The notes under the pieces were generated by a model that was not told where the DNA came from, searched no databases, and saw only the letters and a list, made by a program, of their open reading frames with translations. Position numbers and translations under genes: made by a program. From Candidatus Cardinium hertigii (lineage in GTDB: Bacteria > Bacteroidota > Bacteroidia > Cytophagales_A > Amoebophilaceae), in contig NZ_RARA01000017.1 of the NCBI RefSeq assembly GCF_003788695.1, positions 16,606-29,078 on the forward strand: 12,473 nt of DNA. Reading direction: 5' to 3'. Position 1 is the first letter of the stretch, and the number at the start of each line of letters is the position of its first letter. Shown in pieces: positions 1 through 9,789 of this stretch.

Positions 1-639
1 ATAAATGCCCTACCACCTCCTCTTACTCCTCTTTATGATTCGTATAATGCTAATCTTCATCCATATAACCCAATGTATGTTAGTAAAGACAAAGAGGATA
101 ATCATTTCACCCATAATTCAACCCAAAACGCAACAGATTATCACGTAACACGAAATGGACTTAAGAAAGGGCTAAAAAAATTATGGACAAACAAAATAAA
201 AAAACTAAAAACTATCACATATCGATTATTAACACTACAATATAAAGAAGCTACTCTATTCTGTTTGGAACAAAAACTGGAAAAATTAGAAAATAAAAAA
301 GAAACGTTAACCCAAAAACGAGCAACAATCGATACGGTTACAGAACTAACAAAGTTAAAAAAATGTAAGAAAAAAAAGCTTGATCTAAAAATCAGAATGA
401 AAGAATTTAAAATAAAACTTATTACCAAACAAATTCAAAAAAAACAAGTAAATAGTGAGAAATGTACAAATAATCTTCCCTATTCTCAATTTTCACCTAC
501 TACACCTCAAACAAATAGTGAGAAATGTACAAATAATAATCTCCTCTATCCTCAGCTTTTACCTACTGCACCTTACGATTCTCCTCCTTATGATCATCCT
601 CCTCCTTATAGTCTATACACTACTCCACCATATCCTTGA
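1..639 (+). CDS. Hypothetical Lys-rich protein with PPxY-containing tail, 5' end outside window
   Basis: I do not recognise this protein. Reading frame 1 is open from the first base of the window, so the gene is 5'-truncated here; 212 residues are visible. An internal ATG lies at base 73, but the residues before it (several prolines, then LTPLYDSYN) resemble the Pro/Tyr-rich C-terminus, which argues for an upstream start. Visible residues about 55-150 are extremely Lys-rich with Leu/Glu periodicity, suggesting a helical or coiled-coil region. Next come two tandem 21-residue repeats beginning NSEKCTNN, encoded by a 63-bp DNA repeat. The end is a low-complexity Pro/Tyr tail with PPY, PPPY (about 200-203) and PPY motifs. 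PPxY motifs bind eukaryotic WW domains, so a host-directed protein is possible, but this is inference. No transmembrane segment is evident. An AT-rich low-complexity protein of no known family is the alternative. Confidence 0.65.
   Translation: MNALPPPLTPLYDSYNANLHPYNPMYVSKDKEDNHFTHNSTQNATDYHVTRNGLKKGLKKLWTNKIKKLKTITYRLLTLQYKEATLFCLEQKLEKLENKKETLTQKRATIDTVTELTKLKKCKKKKLDLKIRMKEFKIKLITKQIQKKQVNSEKCTNNLPYSQFSPTTPQTNSEKCTNNNLLYPQLLPTAPYDSPPYDHPPPYSLYTTPPYP
451..576 (+). repeat. Two tandem 63-bp coding repeats
   Basis: Two copies (451-513 and 514-576) each begin with the same stretch aatagtgagaaatgtacaaa. The first 24 bases match exactly and the rest is diverged. The unit length is a multiple of three, so the repeat keeps the frame of the hypothetical protein and gives two NSEKCTNN-type peptide units. 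The second copy carries an extra AAT codon after the conserved block, balanced by a loss later. Confidence 0.8.
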
Positions 640-667: not shown

Positions 668-792
668 TATTTGTTCACTGGCGTGGTAGCCATATGTATC
701 CGTTCAGTGGTATGGCCTATGCGTATTTTTATTTTTTTTCACGTTCGTATTTAGAAATGCACAATAATGTAAGTTTATAAAAAATGCGCCTT

Positions 793-922
793 GAACAAAG
801 CTGTGATTAGAAAATTTCAGGCTGAGAGCTATTGGAAAATCAGCCTGTTTGAGCCCAAGGCTGCAAGCCTGGGCGAGTTCTGATTTTCAGCTTTCAGCCT
901 GAAATTTTCAACAGCTTTGTTC
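793..922. repeat. 130-bp imperfect palindrome within the left copy
   Basis: The outer arms are gaacaaagctgt (from 793) and acagctttgttc (to 922). Further matched blocks inside are gaaaatttcaggctga against tcagcctgaaattttc, and gaaaatcag against ctgattttc. The centre is GCCCAAGGCT (853-862) against AGCCTGGGC (866-874) with one bulged A. Transcribed from either strand, this would fold into a long interrupted hairpin. Confidence 0.85.
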
Positions 923-943
923 ACCAGCGCTTGATTTTTTTTG

Positions 944-975
944 GCTACTTTTTTTGATCAAGCAAAAAAAGTAGC
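944..975. repeat. Perfect 12-bp-stem hairpin in the left copy
   Basis: GCTACTTTTTTT (944-955) pairs exactly with AAAAAAAGTAGC (964-975) around the 8-base loop gatcaagc. The same hairpin is conserved in the right copy at 8386-8417, so it is part of the repeat family. The T-rich stem could also contribute to transcription termination. Confidence 0.7.
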
Positions 976-1076
976 TTTAAAAGAAGTAGTTTTTAAAAAA
1001 AATGGATAAAATTATCAATAATCTATACAATATGGCTGCCACGCCAGTGAACGGATACAGCCATATTCTATATAGA

Positions 1077-2404: not shown

Positions 2405-4056
2405 GGCTGCTTTCATGTATTTTGCTACTTACAAATCGTAAAAATCGTAAAGATAGCTGAGCAACCTGGCATCTTAATTCAGTTTAACGTATAAAAACGC
2501 TGGACACAATATAACATTTTTTTATTTAACAAGGAAATAATTTATTAAAAATTAAAAATTAAGTTCCCCCTTCACCTGCGTGTCAGCCATATTTTATAGA
2601 TTATAGCAAATGGCTAATATTTAATAATGGATGATTTTATCCATACTTGTAATGATATCCTTGCCAGGGGCGTGAACGGAAACGTATATTTTCCGTTTTT
2701 TTTCTTATCTTTATTGACTAATTTTAAATCCTATTATCATACATATAATCTTATGGCGTTCCTTATTAAAACCATTCAATTTTTGGCAGGATTATCCATC
2801 ATTGTTGGTATACATGAATTAGGGCATTTGCTCTTTGCCAAGCTATTTGGAATGCGTGTCAATAGCTATATGATTGGCTTTCCGCCTAAAATATTTAAAA
2901 TAAAATTCGGTGAAACGGAATATGCTTTAGGGTCGATTCCTTTGGGTGGAGCTGTACAGATTGCAGGTATGATAGACGAATCACTAGATAGCAACCATCT
3001 AACCAACCCTCCACAACCCTGGGAATTTCGCTCCAAATCAGCTTGGCAACGGCTAATGGTTATATTAGGAGGTATTGTATTTAATCTGATTAGTGGTACG
3101 CTGATATATATTGGACTAGTATATATGAGGGGATCTACTTATTTACCTAAAGATGAGGTAAATAAATATGGAATTATACCCAATACCATTGGTATGCAAA
3201 TGGGCTTTAAAGAGGGAGATAAAATTATCAAAATTAATGGAAAAGATTTTGAAGACTTTAATGATGCCTTGTCCCCTACCCTTTTACTGCGCGAAAAAAG
3301 CTATTATACCATCATTAGAGATGATAGGGAGTTAAATTTATCCATTCCAGAAAAAATAATAGAATACTTATCAGATAACTACAAAACCCCTTTTATACAA
3401 CCGATTTATCCTTGTGTTATTAGAACCGTTGTACCTAATAGCAACGCTTATCTAGCAGGTTTAATGGAAAAAGATCAGATTATTACACTAGCAGGTAAAG
3501 CTACACTACATATAGATCAATTGATTACGGTCGCTAAAACCTGTTTGGGAAAAGAAGTCGAAATAGTTTATTTGCGCAACGGTATACAAATGGCCACTAC
3601 CATTAAAATTGAGCAGCAAGGGTTAGGAATTGTATTAGCGCAGCCAGCCTATAAGGCATTAAAATATTCATTTCTACAGTCCATCCCTATTGGTGTAAAA
3701 AAAGCCACTACAACTATACAAAATCAATGTTTAGCTATTTGGAAACTGCTAACGGGTAAACTTAGTATCACAAAATCTTTGGGAGGCCCGATTAGCATTG
3801 TACAAATTTTCTCAAATGAATTTATCTGGGATAGATTTTTAGAACTTGTGGCCCTTTTGTCTATAGTTATCGGCTTAACCAACTTGTTACCCTTGCCAGT
3901 ATTAGATGGAGGACATGCCTTATTTATACTCTATGAAATGCTTTCTGGTAGAAAACCTTCAGATAGATTTTTAAAAATCACCCAGAAGTGGGGAATGGTT
4001 ATTTTATTGTTAATCATGCTATATGCATTTGGTAATGACATTCGTAAACTATTAAC
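2405..4056 (+). repeat. Tandem duplication, copy 1 (1652-bp unit)
   Basis: The unit begins ggctgctttcatg at 2405 and runs to attaac at 4051-4056, where the second copy begins at once. It contains about 350 bases of leader and all of rseP except the last codon and stop. Identity with 4057-5708 is complete apart from 3796 (C against A), 3814 (A against T) and the junction base 4056 (C against A at 5708). The junction base may be a one-base filler or a later change. Confidence 0.97.
2603..2752 (+). promoter_or_regulatory. rseP leader with terminator-like hairpin (copy 1)
   Basis: The 417 bases between the helicase start and the rseP start hold no gene. AACGGAAA (2675-2682) and TTTCCGTT (2690-2697) form an 8-bp stem with a 7-base loop, followed by a T-run (2696-2703). 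That is the form of an intrinsic terminator, ending only about 50 bases before the rseP ATG at 2753. A small AT-rich palindrome (2627-2644, ATGGAT to ATCCAT) lies just upstream. Either the hairpin insulates rseP from upstream transcription or it acts as an attenuator in the leader. No regulator-binding pattern is recognisable. Confidence 0.45.
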
Positions 4057-4093
4057 GGCTGCTTTCATGTATTTTGCTACTTACAAATCGTAA
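2753..4093 (+). CDS. rseP: RseP family intramembrane zinc metalloprotease, duplicate copy 1 with altered C-terminus
   Basis: This is a site-2 protease family (M50) enzyme that cleaves transmembrane segments, classically anti-sigma factors and signal-peptide remnants, within the inner membrane. From the ATG at 2753 it has 446 residues: a first membrane helix with the zinc-binding HELGH at 21-25, two PDZ-like regions (roughly 125-205 and 210-290), and a C-terminal membrane domain with N377 and LDGGH at 384-388 supplying the third zinc ligand. An in-frame ATG at 2627 would add 42 residues, but that stretch spans a terminator-like hairpin and would put HExxH too far from the N-terminus, so I reject it. 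The last codon and stop were lost at the duplication junction. After ...DIRKLL the frame runs into the duplicated upstream DNA and ends TAAFMYFATYKS. Residue 348 is Ser, the usual residue in the family's GPIS motif. It is probably active unless the tail interferes. Confidence 0.95.
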   Translation: MAFLIKTIQFLAGLSIIVGIHELGHLLFAKLFGMRVNSYMIGFPPKIFKIKFGETEYALGSIPLGGAVQIAGMIDESLDSNHLTNPPQPWEFRSKSAWQRLMVILGGIVFNLISGTLIYIGLVYMRGSTYLPKDEVNKYGIIPNTIGMQMGFKEGDKIIKINGKDFEDFNDALSPTLLLREKSYYTIIRDDRELNLSIPEKIIEYLSDNYKTPFIQPIYPCVIRTVVPNSNAYLAGLMEKDQIITLAGKATLHIDQLITVAKTCLGKEVEIVYLRNGIQMATTIKIEQQGLGIVLAQPAYKALKYSFLQSIPIGVKKATTTIQNQCLAIWKLLTGKLSITKSLGGPISIVQIFSNEFIWDRFLELVALLSIVIGLTNLLPLPVLDGGHALFILYEMLSGRKPSDRFLKITQKWGMVILLLIMLYAFGNDIRKLLTAAFMYFATYKS

Positions 4094-5708
4094 AAATCGT
4101 AAAGATAGCTGAGCAACCTGGCATCTTAATTCAGTTTAACGTATAAAAACGCTGGACACAATATAACATTTTTTTATTTAACAAGGAAATAATTTATTAA
4201 AAATTAAAAATTAAGTTCCCCCTTCACCTGCGTGTCAGCCATATTTTATAGATTATAGCAAATGGCTAATATTTAATAATGGATGATTTTATCCATACTT
4301 GTAATGATATCCTTGCCAGGGGCGTGAACGGAAACGTATATTTTCCGTTTTTTTTCTTATCTTTATTGACTAATTTTAAATCCTATTATCATACATATAA
4401 TCTTATGGCGTTCCTTATTAAAACCATTCAATTTTTGGCAGGATTATCCATCATTGTTGGTATACATGAATTAGGGCATTTGCTCTTTGCCAAGCTATTT
4501 GGAATGCGTGTCAATAGCTATATGATTGGCTTTCCGCCTAAAATATTTAAAATAAAATTCGGTGAAACGGAATATGCTTTAGGGTCGATTCCTTTGGGTG
4601 GAGCTGTACAGATTGCAGGTATGATAGACGAATCACTAGATAGCAACCATCTAACCAACCCTCCACAACCCTGGGAATTTCGCTCCAAATCAGCTTGGCA
4701 ACGGCTAATGGTTATATTAGGAGGTATTGTATTTAATCTGATTAGTGGTACGCTGATATATATTGGACTAGTATATATGAGGGGATCTACTTATTTACCT
4801 AAAGATGAGGTAAATAAATATGGAATTATACCCAATACCATTGGTATGCAAATGGGCTTTAAAGAGGGAGATAAAATTATCAAAATTAATGGAAAAGATT
4901 TTGAAGACTTTAATGATGCCTTGTCCCCTACCCTTTTACTGCGCGAAAAAAGCTATTATACCATCATTAGAGATGATAGGGAGTTAAATTTATCCATTCC
5001 AGAAAAAATAATAGAATACTTATCAGATAACTACAAAACCCCTTTTATACAACCGATTTATCCTTGTGTTATTAGAACCGTTGTACCTAATAGCAACGCT
5101 TATCTAGCAGGTTTAATGGAAAAAGATCAGATTATTACACTAGCAGGTAAAGCTACACTACATATAGATCAATTGATTACGGTCGCTAAAACCTGTTTGG
5201 GAAAAGAAGTCGAAATAGTTTATTTGCGCAACGGTATACAAATGGCCACTACCATTAAAATTGAGCAGCAAGGGTTAGGAATTGTATTAGCGCAGCCAGC
5301 CTATAAGGCATTAAAATATTCATTTCTACAGTCCATCCCTATTGGTGTAAAAAAAGCCACTACAACTATACAAAATCAATGTTTAGCTATTTGGAAACTG
5401 CTAACGGGTAAACTTAGTATCACAAAATCTTTGGGAGGCCCGATTAGAATTGTACAAATTTTCTCTAATGAATTTATCTGGGATAGATTTTTAGAACTTG
5501 TGGCCCTTTTGTCTATAGTTATCGGCTTAACCAACTTGTTACCCTTGCCAGTATTAGATGGAGGACATGCCTTATTTATACTCTATGAAATGCTTTCTGG
5601 TAGAAAACCTTCAGATAGATTTTTAAAAATCACCCAGAAGTGGGGAATGGTTATTTTATTGTTAATCATGCTATATGCATTTGGTAATGACATTCGTAAA
5701 CTATTAAA
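4057..5708 (+). repeat. Tandem duplication, copy 2 (1652-bp unit)
   Basis: This is the second head-to-tail copy of the rseP unit, directly abutting copy 1. It carries the same leader, including the terminator-like hairpin now at 4327-4349, and the same coding sequence. After 5707 it continues into unique sequence (aaatag) that supplies the native end of rseP. The right end of the duplication is therefore inside the penultimate codons of the gene. Confidence 0.97.
4327..4357 (+). terminator. Terminator-like hairpin between the two rseP copies
   Basis: This is the duplicate of the leader hairpin: AACGGAAA (4327-4334), TTTCCGTT (4342-4349), then a T-run. In this position it lies between copy 1 and the copy 2 start at 4405. 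It could end the copy 1 transcript and leave copy 2 dependent on its own duplicated promoter or on read-through. Confidence 0.5.
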
Positions 5709-5712
5709 ATAG
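4405..5712 (+). CDS. rseP: RseP family intramembrane zinc metalloprotease, duplicate copy 2 with native C-terminus
   Basis: This 435-residue protein is identical to copy 1 through residue 434 except at one site. It carries the same HELGH (21-25), PDZ-like regions and LDGGH (384-388). It ends ...GNDIRKLLK and TAG, which is the natural end for the family. Base 5448 is A instead of C, changing Ser348 to Arg within the GGPI-S-I stretch that precedes the C-terminal catalytic helices. A silent change follows at 5466. As the family usually has Ser here (GPIS), Arg is probably the derived state. Upstream the copy keeps the full leader. It lies 115 bases before lon on the same strand, so the two may be co-transcribed. 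Reduced or altered activity from the Arg is possible but not shown. Confidence 0.95.
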   Translation: MAFLIKTIQFLAGLSIIVGIHELGHLLFAKLFGMRVNSYMIGFPPKIFKIKFGETEYALGSIPLGGAVQIAGMIDESLDSNHLTNPPQPWEFRSKSAWQRLMVILGGIVFNLISGTLIYIGLVYMRGSTYLPKDEVNKYGIIPNTIGMQMGFKEGDKIIKINGKDFEDFNDALSPTLLLREKSYYTIIRDDRELNLSIPEKIIEYLSDNYKTPFIQPIYPCVIRTVVPNSNAYLAGLMEKDQIITLAGKATLHIDQLITVAKTCLGKEVEIVYLRNGIQMATTIKIEQQGLGIVLAQPAYKALKYSFLQSIPIGVKKATTTIQNQCLAIWKLLTGKLSITKSLGGPIRIVQIFSNEFIWDRFLELVALLSIVIGLTNLLPLPVLDGGHALFILYEMLSGRKPSDRFLKITQKWGMVILLLIMLYAFGNDIRKLLK

Positions 5713-5827
5713 TTGGTAACCATAAGCGCACTTGTTTTTATTTTTCTGGCATATTATTTGCTGTATTTTGATGTATACGGTAATATACGTCAGTAAAAGC
5801 GCCACTATTAATCCTTATTAAGTAATT

Positions 5828-8308
5828 ATGTACAAAAAACCACTAGAAATGGAGGGCCCGCTCTCTTCGGCATGGGCAGAAGATGGCATAGGAAGTATGG
5901 TAGAGCTCATTGTTTCTGATGAACCAGAACACCTTGCCAATGACCATTCCTTAGGTAGAATTCCCTTACTTGCCTTACGCAATACGGTTCTTTTTCCTAA
6001 TGTTATAGTACCTATCACAGTTAAAGAAAGGCAGGCCATACATTTGGTAGAGACTATACATGAACGAGATGGTCTGTTGGGCATTATAGCGCAACAAAAT
6101 CCAGAAACCTTTGAAGGCAAGCCAACTGATATTTACAAAATAGGTACACTGGCCAAAATCATCAAAATCATTAATTTCCCAAATGGCAGAACCATTGTTT
6201 TGGTACATGGAAAACAAAAATTCCAAACCATAGAGGTCTTTACAGCATCATTAGGCCTAGAGGCTACTGTTCAATTTTTAAGGGACCAGTCCTATAAAGA
6301 AGACAAGAAAGTGCTTGCTCTTATGCAATCATTGAAAGATGTGGCCATTAAGATCCTTAAATTTCGATCTGATGTATCTAATGAAGCACATACCATACTA
6401 GCTAATATTAAAAGTCCAGATTTTCTTACCTATTTTTTGGCTTCTAACTTGAATACGGATGTGCACCATAAACAAAAGTTCCTGGAGTTAAATAGCAGTA
6501 TTAAGCGAGCAAATTTACTTTTAAAACATCTTTTAAATGAATTAGAAATTTCAGAATTAAAAAAAGAAATTCAGGACAAAGTACATTCCGATATCAGTCA
6601 GCAGCAGCGCGATTACTACTTAAGGCAACAAGTAAAAGTACTACAAGATGAATTAGGAGAAAACGAGCTTACAGATGAAATAGATGCATTACGTGCAAAA
6701 GGAGACAAAAAACAATGGCCTAAAGAAGTAGCAGATTATTTTAAAAAAGAATTGGATAAAGCTGAACGCATGAGTCCTCATAGCCCAGACTATTCTATTA
6801 GTATCAACCACGCAGAACTGCTAGTAGAACTCCCCTGGGGTATTTATACCAAAGATAATTTAGATCTCAACCGGGCTAAAAAGATTTTTGATGCCGATCA
6901 CTATGGTATTGAAAAAGTAAAAGAGCGGCTTTTAGAATTTCTAGCTGTTTTGAAGCTAAAAAAAAATATGAAGGGGCCTATTTTATGTTTATGTGGTCCT
7001 CCTGGAGTAGGCAAAACCTCTTTGGGAAAATCTATTGCAAAAGCAATGGGGAGAAAATATGCACGCATTGCGCTCGGTGGACTAAATGATGAGGCCGAAA
7101 TACGTGGTCATAGAAAAACGTATATTGGAGCCATGCCTGGAAAAATTATTTATAACATTCAACGAGCCACTTCATCTAACCCCGTTATTGTGCTGGATGA
7201 AATAGATAAAATAGATGGCATGCGGGGGGATCCGTCTGCTGCATTATTGGAAGTCCTAGACCCAGAGCAAAATAATGTCTTTGTGGATAATTTCTTAGAA
7301 GTGCCCTATGACCTTTCTAATATTCTATTTTTAGCCACTGCCAATTCCATGGATCGCATCCCAGCCGCTTTACAGGACAGAATGGAAGTAATTGATGTGA
7401 GCGGGTACCTCCTAGAAGAAAAAGTGGAAATTTCAAAAAAATACCTTGTGCCAAAGCAAAGGAAAGAACATGGACTTAAATTTACCGATTTGGCTATACA
7501 AGATGAGGCCATAGCCACCATTATAGAAAGTTATACCCGAGAATCTGGTGTACGAGAGTTATCCAGACAAATAGCCAATATTTGCAGAAAAACAGCCAAA
7601 TCAATTGCTTTAGGAGAACCTTATCTTAAAAAGATTAAAAAATCAGATGTTGCTACTTTGCTTGGTCCAGAACTATTTGATAATACCCCTTACCAAGAAA
7701 CAGCTCTGCCCGGTGTTTCCGTTGGATTAGCTTGGACTGCTGCTGGTGGCGAAATTCTCTTTATAGAATCTGTATTGAGTAAAGGAAAAGGAAGGGTTAA
7801 TGTGTCTGGCCACTTAGGAGAAGTCATGAAGGAATCTGCTATGACTGCTCTTTCTTATCTAAAAGCCAACGAACAATACCTTGATGTATCACATAATGTT
7901 TTTGAAAATTATGATTTACATATTCACGTTCCTTCTGGCGCAGTGCCAAAAGATGGCCCCTCTGCTGGTATTACTCTTTTTACTTCATTAGCCTCCCTTT
8001 ATACACAGAAAAAAGTAAAAGATTGTTTAGCTATGACAGGAGAAATTACTTTGCGTGGAGAAGTGCTGCCAGTAGGTGGTATTAAAGAAAAAATTTTAGC
8101 GGCAAAACGTGTGGGGATGAAAGAGATTATCCTAAGTAGCAAAAATAAAAAGGATGTGCAAGAAATTAAAGAAATCTACCGCAATAACTTAATATTCCAC
8201 TATGTAGATCGGGTAGATGAGGTTTATCGTTTGGCGATACAAAAAGATAAGATACCAGATGCAAAAGTTTGGGATGGTAGTTTGCTGAGCACAAATAGGG
8301 AAGCTTAA
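5828..8308 (+). CDS. lon: ATP-dependent protease Lon
   Basis: Lon is a cytoplasmic homohexameric AAA+ serine protease that unfolds and degrades damaged and regulatory proteins. At 826 residues it is full length for bacterial Lon. Order of parts: N-terminal LON substrate-binding domain (about 43-240, starting [14 protein letters not shown]), coiled-coil linker (about 240-330), and AAA+ domain with Walker A GPPGVGKT (390-397), Walker B VIVLDEID (453-460), conserved [13 protein letters not shown] (426-438) and an arginine-finger candidate R518. The C-terminal protease domain has the catalytic pair S712 in KDGPSAG and K755 in GGIKEK, 43 residues apart as in the E. coli enzyme. The ATG at 5828 is the first after an in-frame stop and gives an N-terminal extension of about 40 residues before the conserved domain, common in Bacteroidetes Lon. 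Nothing looks broken. A T-rich hairpin repeat follows the stop. Confidence 0.98.
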
Positions 8309-8330: not shown

Positions 8331-8390
8331 TTTTTTTAAAACTACTTATTTTAAAGCTACTTTTTTTAAAACTACTTATTTTAAAGCTAC
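8331..8390 (+). repeat. Two tandem 30-bp units inside the right repeat copy
   Basis: 8331-8360 and 8361-8390 are identical 30-mers (T-run, aaaactacttattttaaagc, tac). The left repeat copy has only one, slightly different unit, so this is a local duplication that arose after the copies separated. Confidence 0.95.
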
Positions 8391-8417
8391 TTTTTTTGCT
8401 TGATCAAAAAAAGTAGC
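8386..8417 (+). terminator. Perfect hairpin downstream of lon, possible terminator
   Basis: GCTACTTTTTTT (8386-8397) and AAAAAAAGTAGC (8406-8417) pair perfectly around the loop gcttgatc, 78 bases after the lon stop. The family is a repeat, and the tract after the stem is A-rich not T-rich on the plus strand, so a terminator role for lon is uncertain. On the minus strand it would be followed by T-rich sequence. Confidence 0.35.
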
Positions 8418-8438
8418 CAAAAAAAATCAAGCGCTGGT

Positions 8439-8568
8439 GAACAAAGCTGTTGAAAATTTCAGCCTGAAAGCTGAAAATCAAAACTCGCCCAGGCTTGCAG
8501 CCTTGGGCTTAAACAAATTGATTTTCTAATAGCTTTCAGACTGAAATTTTCTAATCACAGCTTTGTTC
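8439..8568. repeat. 130-bp imperfect palindrome within the right copy
   Basis: This is the same palindrome as at 793-922, from gaacaaagctgt to acagctttgttc, with the core GCCCAGGCT and AGCCTTGGGC. Several substitutions differ between the two copies, but the overall symmetry and the exact 130-bp length are retained. Confidence 0.85.
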
Positions 8569-8598
8569 AAGGCGCGTTTTTTATAAACTTACATTATT

Positions 8599-8688
8599 AC
8601 GCTATTTTTAATTGGCCACACGACTGATACGCTATTTTTAATTGGCCACACGACTGATACGCTATTTTTAATTGGCCACACGACTGAA
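8599..8688 (+). repeat. Three tandem copies of a 30-bp unit
   Basis: Units at 8599-8628, 8629-8658 and 8659-8688 are essentially identical, with the core gctatttttaattggccaca followed by cgactga. A single diverged relative is visible in inverted orientation near the left element (696-732, ttcagtggtatggcc then an AT-rich run). The array was therefore expanded from a sequence already belonging to the repeat family. Confidence 0.95.
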
Positions 8689-8698
8689 CGGATACTAG

Positions 8699-8832
8699 AA
8701 AGCTGGCAAGGCGCGCGAGGGTGAAGCGCACGCAGCATAGTACCCACTATGCAAGTTCCCCCCATGATGTATATACATACATCATGGGGATCCCAAGTAC
8801 GCTGAATCCCGAAACGGAACATAGCCAGCTTT
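8699..8832. other. GC-rich structured element with nested hairpins
   Basis: The outer ends aaagctggc (8699-8707) and gccagcttt (8824-8832) are inverted repeats. Inside are two perfect hairpins: GCATAGT/ACTATGC (8735-8741 and 8746-8752, loop ACCC), and a 13-bp stem CCCCATGATGTAT/ATACATCATGGGG (8760-8772 and 8777-8789, loop ATAC). The 8707-8736 part is strikingly GC-rich against its AT-rich surroundings. It could be a small repeat/MITE-like element or a structured RNA. No known RNA family is recognised and no protein is evident. Confidence 0.6.
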
Positions 8833-8973: not shown

Positions 8974-9789
8974 ATGTCTCTACAAAGGATACTATACGTT
9001 GCAAGTGAGATCGCTCCTTTTCTAGAAACCTCCCTTGTGTCAAATTGTGTACGAAAATTACCGGAAGCCATGCAAAATAGACAGATGGATGTACGGATTA
9101 TAGTACCTAAGTTTGGTATTATTAATGACCGGATGAATAGATTGCATGAAGTATTACGTTTATCAGGCACTATTGTTTCGATACATGAAGTACAGTATGC
9201 TATTTCTGTCAAAGTAAGCACTATACCCAATACGCGTTTACAAGTTTATTTTATAGGTAATGATGATCTATTTGGAAATAGAAAAGCGGTATTTAAAGAT
9301 GCATATAATAACTTTTTTGAAGATAATGACTTACGTATGATTTTTTTCTGCACAGCTGTAATGGAAAGTCTCAAAAAGCTTGAATGGGAAGCAGACATTG
9401 TACATTGTCATGATTGGATCACAAGCTTAATACCTCTTTTTTGGAAAAAATTATACAAGAACCATCCTCTTTTTACAAAAGCTAAGCTCATTTCTACTAT
9501 TTATAACAATACATTCTCACATCATTTTCCATTTTTAGCGGAAAAAGTAGCAAAGATAGGTGTGGCAAATGAAGATACCGCTTTTTTGGCTTCTGGAAGT
9601 TTTCGCAATATTATTCAGTTGGCTATGCACTATTCTGATATAGTAGTTCGTGGAGAAAAGCTTGATGCAACTGAATTTAAAGACTTATTTACTGGGCAAG
9701 ATCTGCCTTTGGTTGAAAACGACGATCTGTATAACGAGCATCATTTTAAAATGTACGCACATCTCATGTGCCCTGACCTAACTTTTTAA
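8974..9789 (+). CDS. Short GT5-type glycogen/starch synthase N-terminal domain protein
   Basis: The 271-residue protein matches only the N-terminal Rossmann half of glycogen synthases. It starts LQRILYVASEIAPF and includes ADIVHCHDWITSLIPL (about 140-155), the usual acceptor-side block. Full GT5 synthases are about 450-500 residues with a second nucleotide-sugar-binding domain, which is absent here. The KTGGL motif that normally follows the SEIAPF block is replaced by ETSLVS. Short proteins of this kind, often labelled glycogen synthase, are widespread in Bacteroidetes, so it is probably a stable family and not a fresh truncation. True synthase activity is doubtful and its role is unknown. 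The ATG at 8974 is well placed, and TATGTTTA about 45 bases upstream weakly resembles a Bacteroidetes -7 element. The neighbouring gene mlaF converges from the right. Confidence 0.85.
   Translation: MSLQRILYVASEIAPFLETSLVSNCVRKLPEAMQNRQMDVRIIVPKFGIINDRMNRLHEVLRLSGTIVSIHEVQYAISVKVSTIPNTRLQVYFIGNDDLFGNRKAVFKDAYNNFFEDNDLRMIFFCTAVMESLKKLEWEADIVHCHDWITSLIPLFWKKLYKNHPLFTKAKLISTIYNNTFSHHFPFLAEKVAKIGVANEDTAFLASGSFRNIIQLAMHYSDIVVRGEKLDATEFKDLFTGQDLPLVENDDLYNEHHFKMYAHLMCPDLTF

What the first reader, a model, noticed from the sequence alone, without database searches (positions are those of the whole stretch)
2405..5708. Very recent head-to-tail duplication of a complete rseP gene with its leader
A 1652-bp unit occurs twice in direct contact with two internal differences. 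The breakpoints lie in the intergenic region upstream of rseP and in its penultimate codons, so both copies stay intact genes. In a genome that looks reduced, keeping two intramembrane proteases could reflect selection for dosage, or an event too young to have been lost.
Basis: seen in the sequence. Interest (0 to 1): 0.7.

Follow-up and report, generated by a model that had tools for sequence, protein, structure and literature searches.

The report
Young tandem copy of rseP gene
A bacterium related to the insect symbiont Cardinium appears to carry two almost identical side-by-side copies of a membrane protease gene with its control region; this looks like an ordinary, very young tandem gene duplication that still needs sequencing reads to rule out an assembly error.

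Summary
In detail: 2405-4055 and 4057-5707 differ at two of 1651 positions, and both copies encode full-length RseP. The source is Cardinium-like (nearest other RseP 70%); rseP is followed by lon in 7 of 7 loci examined, and gives one match in each of 18 matching genomes of 21 searched. Refinements: (1) the join has at most a 2-bp overlap, then base C4056, which fits neither flank; (2) the right breakpoint lies in the 2-nt spacer of a 7-bp-arm inverted repeat; (3) each leader contains a 17-nt block also found upstream of rseP in 5 relatives; (4) copy 1 has 12 new C-terminal residues in place of its last lysine, copy 2 has S348R, a residue seen in 0 of 118 relatives; (5) the two substitutions lie 18 bp apart and complete a 6-bp inverted repeat, so may be one event (post hoc). 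Best reading: a real, young, short-homology tandem duplication, probably transient. Dosage selection is untested; an assembly or amplification chimera is not excluded. Known kind of event, modest interest.

The parts
2405..4055 (+). repeat unit 1 (leader 1 + rseP copy 1)
   Evidence: register-1652 comparison
4057..5707 (+). repeat unit 2 (leader 2 + rseP copy 2), 2 of 1651 bases different from unit 1
4054..4056 (+). novel junction: AA shared by the left (2402-2403) and right (5706-5707) flanks, then C that fits neither flank
2405..2752 (+). leader 1, 348 bp, presumed non-coding
   Evidence: start codon placed by 23 aligned relatives
4057..4404 (+). leader 2, identical to leader 1
2697..2713 (+). 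conserved block TTTTTTnCTTATnTTTA, 39 bp between it and the start codon of rseP copy 1
4349..4365 (+). same block upstream of rseP copy 2
2674..2698 (+). hairpin followed by a T run, terminator-like, abutting the conserved block (second copy 4326-4350); the number of such hits equals the shuffle expectation
2753..4093 (+). rseP copy 1, 446 aa, last 12 residues replace K435
   Evidence: TIGR00054 253.1 bits and PF02163 (on the ORF from 2627); HExxH and LDG motifs conserved; model matches RseP structures
4405..5712 (+). rseP copy 2, 435 aa, native C-terminus, S348R
   Evidence: TIGR00054 251.7 bits (on the ORF from 4279); residue counts
3796..3814 (+). span of the two differences (copy 2: 5448, 5466): AGC/AGA, S348R, and TCA/TCT, synonymous
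5699..5714 (+). AACTATT-AA-AATAGTT inverted repeat whose 2-nt spacer is the right breakpoint
5828..8308 (+). lon, downstream neighbour of rseP, kept in relatives
   Evidence: 7 of 7 loci examined

Best explanation
A Cardinium-like symbiont carries a real, very young tandem duplication of one presumed expression unit, leader plus rseP. It probably arose without long homology: a replication template switch or end joining from the hairpin-prone 3' end of rseP back to a site 70 bp outside the helicase start, using at most a 2-bp AA overlap. Each copy kept an upstream block also found before rseP in relatives, so both are probably transcribed and give about double dosage of an ordinary RseP site-2 protease. 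The array is expected to be labile to RecA and is probably a transient, near-neutral state. Shown: repeat, junction sequence, open frames, shared block, one match per relative. Inferred: reality in the cell, mechanism, expression, lability, fate.
For: Two of 1651 bases differ. rseP gives one match in each of 18 matching genomes of 21 searched in the family, so the duplication is most simply derived. The join has only a 2-bp overlap and an unshared base; an overlap-based assembly error would more easily happen at long shared sequence (inference). The right breakpoint lies in the spacer of a 7-bp-arm inverted repeat; 0.24% of window positions are within 1 bp of the centre of such a repeat (arms 7 or more, spacer up to 4; post hoc). 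Copy 1 has S348 with codon AGC, as in 4 of the 5 relative loci with serine there; R, as in copy 2, is seen in 0 of 118 relatives, so the copies have begun to differ. recA is over the curated cut-off in 21 of 21 family genomes. The 17-nt block is present in both leaders.
Against: No reads, no own genome, and no second assembly of the species were available. In the passages of PMC3411829 that I saw, the verified Salmonella duplications had junction homology of 11 bp or more; shorter joins there were hard to tell from chimeric reads, though nothing under 7 bp appears among the tested duplications in the passage. The two differences cluster within 18 bp (2.2% by chance) and one gives a residue unseen in relatives, which could also be local sequence error. 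The inverted-repeat arguments were found after looking at the data; the fold-energy version of the second one is not exceptional (14% of random pairs do as well).
Confidence: 0.7

Rival explanations
1. Assembly or whole-genome-amplification artefact: a single-copy locus, perhaps with strain variation at two sites, joined to itself through a chimeric read or molecule.
For: No reads; a 2-bp overlap with an extra base is also what chimeric joins can look like (PMC3411829 passages); one match in each of 18 matching relatives; the two variant sites are close together and one gives a residue unseen in 118 relatives.
Against: Head-to-tail join with the flanks in order (helicase on the left, lon on the right as in relatives) and two resolved differences; some sequence over the unique junction must exist for it to be assembled (inference).
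Confidence: 0.22
2. A selected amplification: extra RseP dosage is favoured, and the array is kept or varies in copy number.
For: Whole presumed expression unit duplicated with its upstream block; both frames open; RseP acts in envelope stress control in E. coli (abstracts in the search listing). Octomom in Wolbachia is a symbiont precedent for copy number with a phenotype (PMC4323108, passages).
Against: No expression, population or phenotype data; two differences give no power to test selection; 18 of 18 matching relatives show one match.
Confidence: 0.08
3. Early functional divergence: copy 1 with a changed C-terminus and copy 2 with S348R are on the way to different roles or to loss of one. 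(Not exclusive of the best explanation.)
For: S348R at a position that is G or S in 115 of 118 relatives; 12-residue C-terminal change in copy 1.
Against: One amino-acid substitution besides the tail; catalytic motifs intact in both copies; C-terminal ends vary by a few residues among relatives too.
Confidence: 0.1

Closest known systems
Spontaneous bacterial tandem duplication (gene duplication-amplification)
   Same: direct head-to-tail copies, novel junction, expected RecA-lability
   Different: one gene only and about 2 bp of junction overlap; the verified Salmonella duplications in PMC3411829 (passages) had 11 bp or more
Wolbachia Octomom amplification (PMC4323108, passages)
   Same: tandem copy-number change in an insect symbiont
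   Different: about 21 kb, flanked by direct repeats, known phenotype; here 1.65 kb, no dispersed repeats at the ends, no phenotype known
RseP / site-2 protease family (TIGR00054; A. aeolicus 9j82/9j83, E. coli 7w6x)
   Same: domains, motifs and fold
   Different: nothing seen beyond the duplicate, the copy 1 tail and S348R in copy 2
DUF1703 gene family expansion in Cardinium cCpun (PMC6387759, passages)
   Same: paralogue gain in the same symbiont group
   Different: 25 divergent paralogues (mean 39% identity, described there as not recent); here a housekeeping gene with 2 differences

Membership tests
RseP metalloprotease (TIGR00054 / M50) | score over curated cut-off | tested here: met
   253.1 and 251.7 bits against 147.55
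RseP metalloprotease (TIGR00054 / M50) | HExxH and C-terminal N/P..LDG motifs | tested here: met
   H21 E22 H25 and N377 P380 P382 L384 D385 G386 invariant over the 25 rows; their catalytic role is recalled
RseP metalloprotease (TIGR00054 / M50) | fold with a PDZ tandem | tested here: met
   PDZ_6 in 2 stretches; Foldseek best 9j83_A, E 6.1e-29, TMq 0.75, (copy 1 modelled)
RseP metalloprotease (TIGR00054 / M50) | intramembrane cleavage activity | not testable with these tools
   no assay
spontaneous tandem duplication | direct adjacent copies with a novel junction, single copy in relatives | tested here: met
spontaneous tandem duplication | direct repeat homology at the endpoints (usual, not obligatory) | tested here: not met
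   at most 2 bp; so of the short- or no-homology type
spontaneous tandem duplication | presence in the cell (reads, depth) | not testable with these tools
   no reads; genome not held
selected amplification (Octomom-like) | copy-number variation linked to a phenotype | not testable with these tools
   no population or phenotype data
transposon-borne duplication | flanking IS or transposase | tested here: not met
   no transposase among the 9 ORFs scanned (9 of the 18 listed); no dispersed repeat at the breakpoints among those listed (20 of 33 direct families, 25 of 40 inverted pairs)

The most novel reading that the evidence does not exclude
A small-genome symbiont uses a RecA-labile tandem array of a complete rseP expression unit, formed at a hairpin at the 3' end of the gene and carrying an rseP-linked upstream element, as a reversible dosage switch for envelope proteolysis; a hairpin-templated double substitution has already begun to separate the copies.
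Probability: 0.06. Interest if true: 0.55.

Novelty: new member of a known kind. Interest (0 to 1): 0.25.

Why it matters
Symbiont genomes are thought of mainly as losing genes. A young duplicate of a core membrane protease would show that single-gene amplification still happens there and would give a clean case of a short-homology duplication with its first differences in place. The block upstream of rseP in Cardinium-type genomes is a small testable regulatory lead of its own.

Tried and rejected
Own genome: not held, so genome-wide copy number and depth could not be examined. TIGR00054 over 291 genomes of the order was meant to give a base rate of multi-copy rseP; most genomes rang several times (up to 6), presumably through other PDZ proteins, so it is uninformative and not used; with this looser profile several family genomes too show 2-4 matches (for instance G010, G011, G018, G019), which I read as PDZ cross-hits but did not inspect, whereas the window's protein gave one match each. 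The leader as DNA against 21 genomes gave only matches of 27-59 bp in 4 of 21; their places were not examined and they are not used. The repeat shared by the leader (2568-2604) and the intergenic region at 1018-1054 does not lie at a breakpoint, so it was rejected as the cause. A mobile-element origin of the unit was rejected for want of a transposase or end repeats among what was scanned. Promoter scan: 17 sigma-70-like sites against 18.5 (sd 4.5) in shuffles, uninformative. Literature: the seven searches listed no paper whose title or shown abstract start describes a duplicated rseP in Cardinium or another symbiont; I saw passages of four papers only; PMC12560110 has 0 occurrences of rseP in its main text.

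Full report
What was checked. The window was compared with itself at a shift of 1652 bases. From 2405 to 4055 it equals 4057 to 5707 except at two positions, 3796 (C, against A at 5448) and 3814 (A, against T at 5466). Outside these limits the match ends. The only overlap at the join is AA (2402-2403, 4054-4055, 5706-5707). The unit therefore formed with at most 2 bp of homology, and one base was added or changed at the join.

What the genes are. Both copies score far above the curated cut-off for RseP (253.1 and 251.7 bits, cut-off 147.55) and carry Peptidase_M50 and PDZ domains. A model of copy 1 (mean pLDDT 84.7) matches solved RseP structures of Aquifex aeolicus, E. coli and Kangiella. An alignment of 25 rows, 23 of them relatives chosen from the 118 listed, places the start at or near 2753/4405 and shows the HExxH and LDG motifs intact in both copies. 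Copy 2 ends in ...RKLLK; most of the aligned relatives end at or within a residue or two of that point, a few run on for 2 to 4 residues. Copy 1 loses the lysine and gains 12 residues, 11 of them from the leader that follows; the model continues the last helix into them at low confidence (mean pLDDT 56 in the last block).

Whose genome. No whole genome is held for the window. The nearest other RseP proteins are from Cardinium (70% and below); the database holds the two window copies as single entries, each on a contig of 37,890 bases. In the family of the nearest MAG, 18 of 21 genomes have a match to the window's RseP and each has one; the other 3 had none with this query. In 7 of 7 loci examined rseP is followed by lon, as in the window. 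Upstream the order differs: in 4 of the 7 loci I read the upstream gene as hslU (named from its sequence by recall, not by a search), split into two frames in one of them; in the window it is a divergent DEAD-box helicase gene.

The leader. In an alignment of upstream regions one short block stands out, TTTTTTnCTTATnTTTA, 39 bp before the start codon in the window, in both copies. As an exact pattern it occurs in 5 of 21 family genomes, once in each, always 31 to 81 bp upstream of rseP (with the rseP places). The pattern was read from these same loci, so finding it there is by construction; what the search adds is that it occurs nowhere else in those genomes. A form one base shorter has a second site in one of the loci (L027:12536). 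The reversed control pattern gave 9 hits in all, so the motif is not unusually frequent overall. Thirteen of the 18 rseP-bearing genomes lack the exact form. The block may be a promoter or another control element, which is inference; its duplication suggests that each rseP copy has its own control region. A terminator-like hairpin abuts it in the window, but such hits are at the level of chance.

Divergence of the copies. Position 348 is G in 101, S in 14, and A, K or E in one each of 118 relatives; R occurs in none (these are the listed best 118 of 7878 hits, of which only 8000 candidates were scored). Copy 1 has S with the codon AGC, as in 4 of the 5 relative loci with serine there, so copy 2 most likely carries the new state. 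The other difference is synonymous and could not be polarised. Two random sites in 1651 bp lie within 18 bp of each other in 2.2% of cases. The two changes together turn a 4-of-6 match into a perfect 6-bp inverted repeat, ATTAGA ... TCTAAT, in copy 2; 1.2% of random pairs at this spacing complete such a repeat. This fits a single hairpin-templated event, but it was noticed after the fact, and the gain in predicted folding energy is not exceptional (14% of random pairs). With one or two events and possible gene conversion between copies, the divergence cannot be turned into an age.

Mechanism. The right breakpoint falls in the 2-base spacer of AACTATT-AA-AATAGTT. Only 0.24% of window positions lie within one base of the centre of such a repeat. 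A hairpin there could stall replication and favour a switch back to the leader. This too is post hoc, and no such repeat was found at the left breakpoint. The long interspersed repeats of the window do not touch the breakpoints, and no transposase is among the ORFs scanned, so recombination between repeats and transposition are unlikely causes. Once formed, 1651 bp of near-identity should recombine readily: recA is over the cut-off in 21 of 21 family genomes, with internal stops in one; for the window's own genome this is an inference.

Real or artefact. For reality: the join is specific, the flanks are in order, and the copies differ. Against: no reads; a 2-bp join is what chimeric molecules can also show, and in the passages of PMC3411829 that I saw the verified duplications had junction homology of at least 11 bp. 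I put reality at about 0.7 to 0.8.

Verdict. A confirmed sequence observation, most likely an ordinary young tandem duplication of a complete gene with its control region. Selection for dosage is possible but has no support here. The kind of event is known; the case is a new member.

Noticed in passing
window 749-1000 and 8361-8612: About 251 bp copies in inverted orientation (94% identical) flank the helicase-rseP-rseP-lon block. Related sequence is an interspersed family in relatives: 33 matches in G012, 32 in G013, 9 in G014, 3 in G001, 1 each in G008, G009, G010; 7 of 21 genomes in all, with only 30 first-look candidates scored in most. Recombination between the arms could invert the block.
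   Followed up: partly
window 2697-2713 and 4349-4365: TTTTTTnCTTATnTTTA, found once per genome, upstream of rseP, in 5 of 21 family genomes (the pattern was derived from these loci); possible regulatory element.
   Followed up: partly
window 8598-8687: Three perfect head-to-tail copies of a 30-nt unit between lon and a glycogen-synthase-like gene.
   Followed up: no
window 8760-8789: Perfect palindrome with 13-bp arms and a 4-nt loop in the same intergenic region.
   Followed up: no
window 8974-9789: Glycogen/starch-synthase-like ORF of 271 aa with only the N-terminal part of the profiles matched, far below the curated NCBIfam cut-offs.
   Followed up: no
window 73-639: ORF of 188 aa with an internal repeat and a proline/tyrosine-rich tail, no family match in Pfam or NCBIfam.
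   Followed up: no
L029 (G012) upstream of rseP; G012:C1:1051584-1052545: In this relative the gene I read as hslU is split into two frames and recA carries internal stops: decay of these genes, or sequence errors.
   Followed up: no
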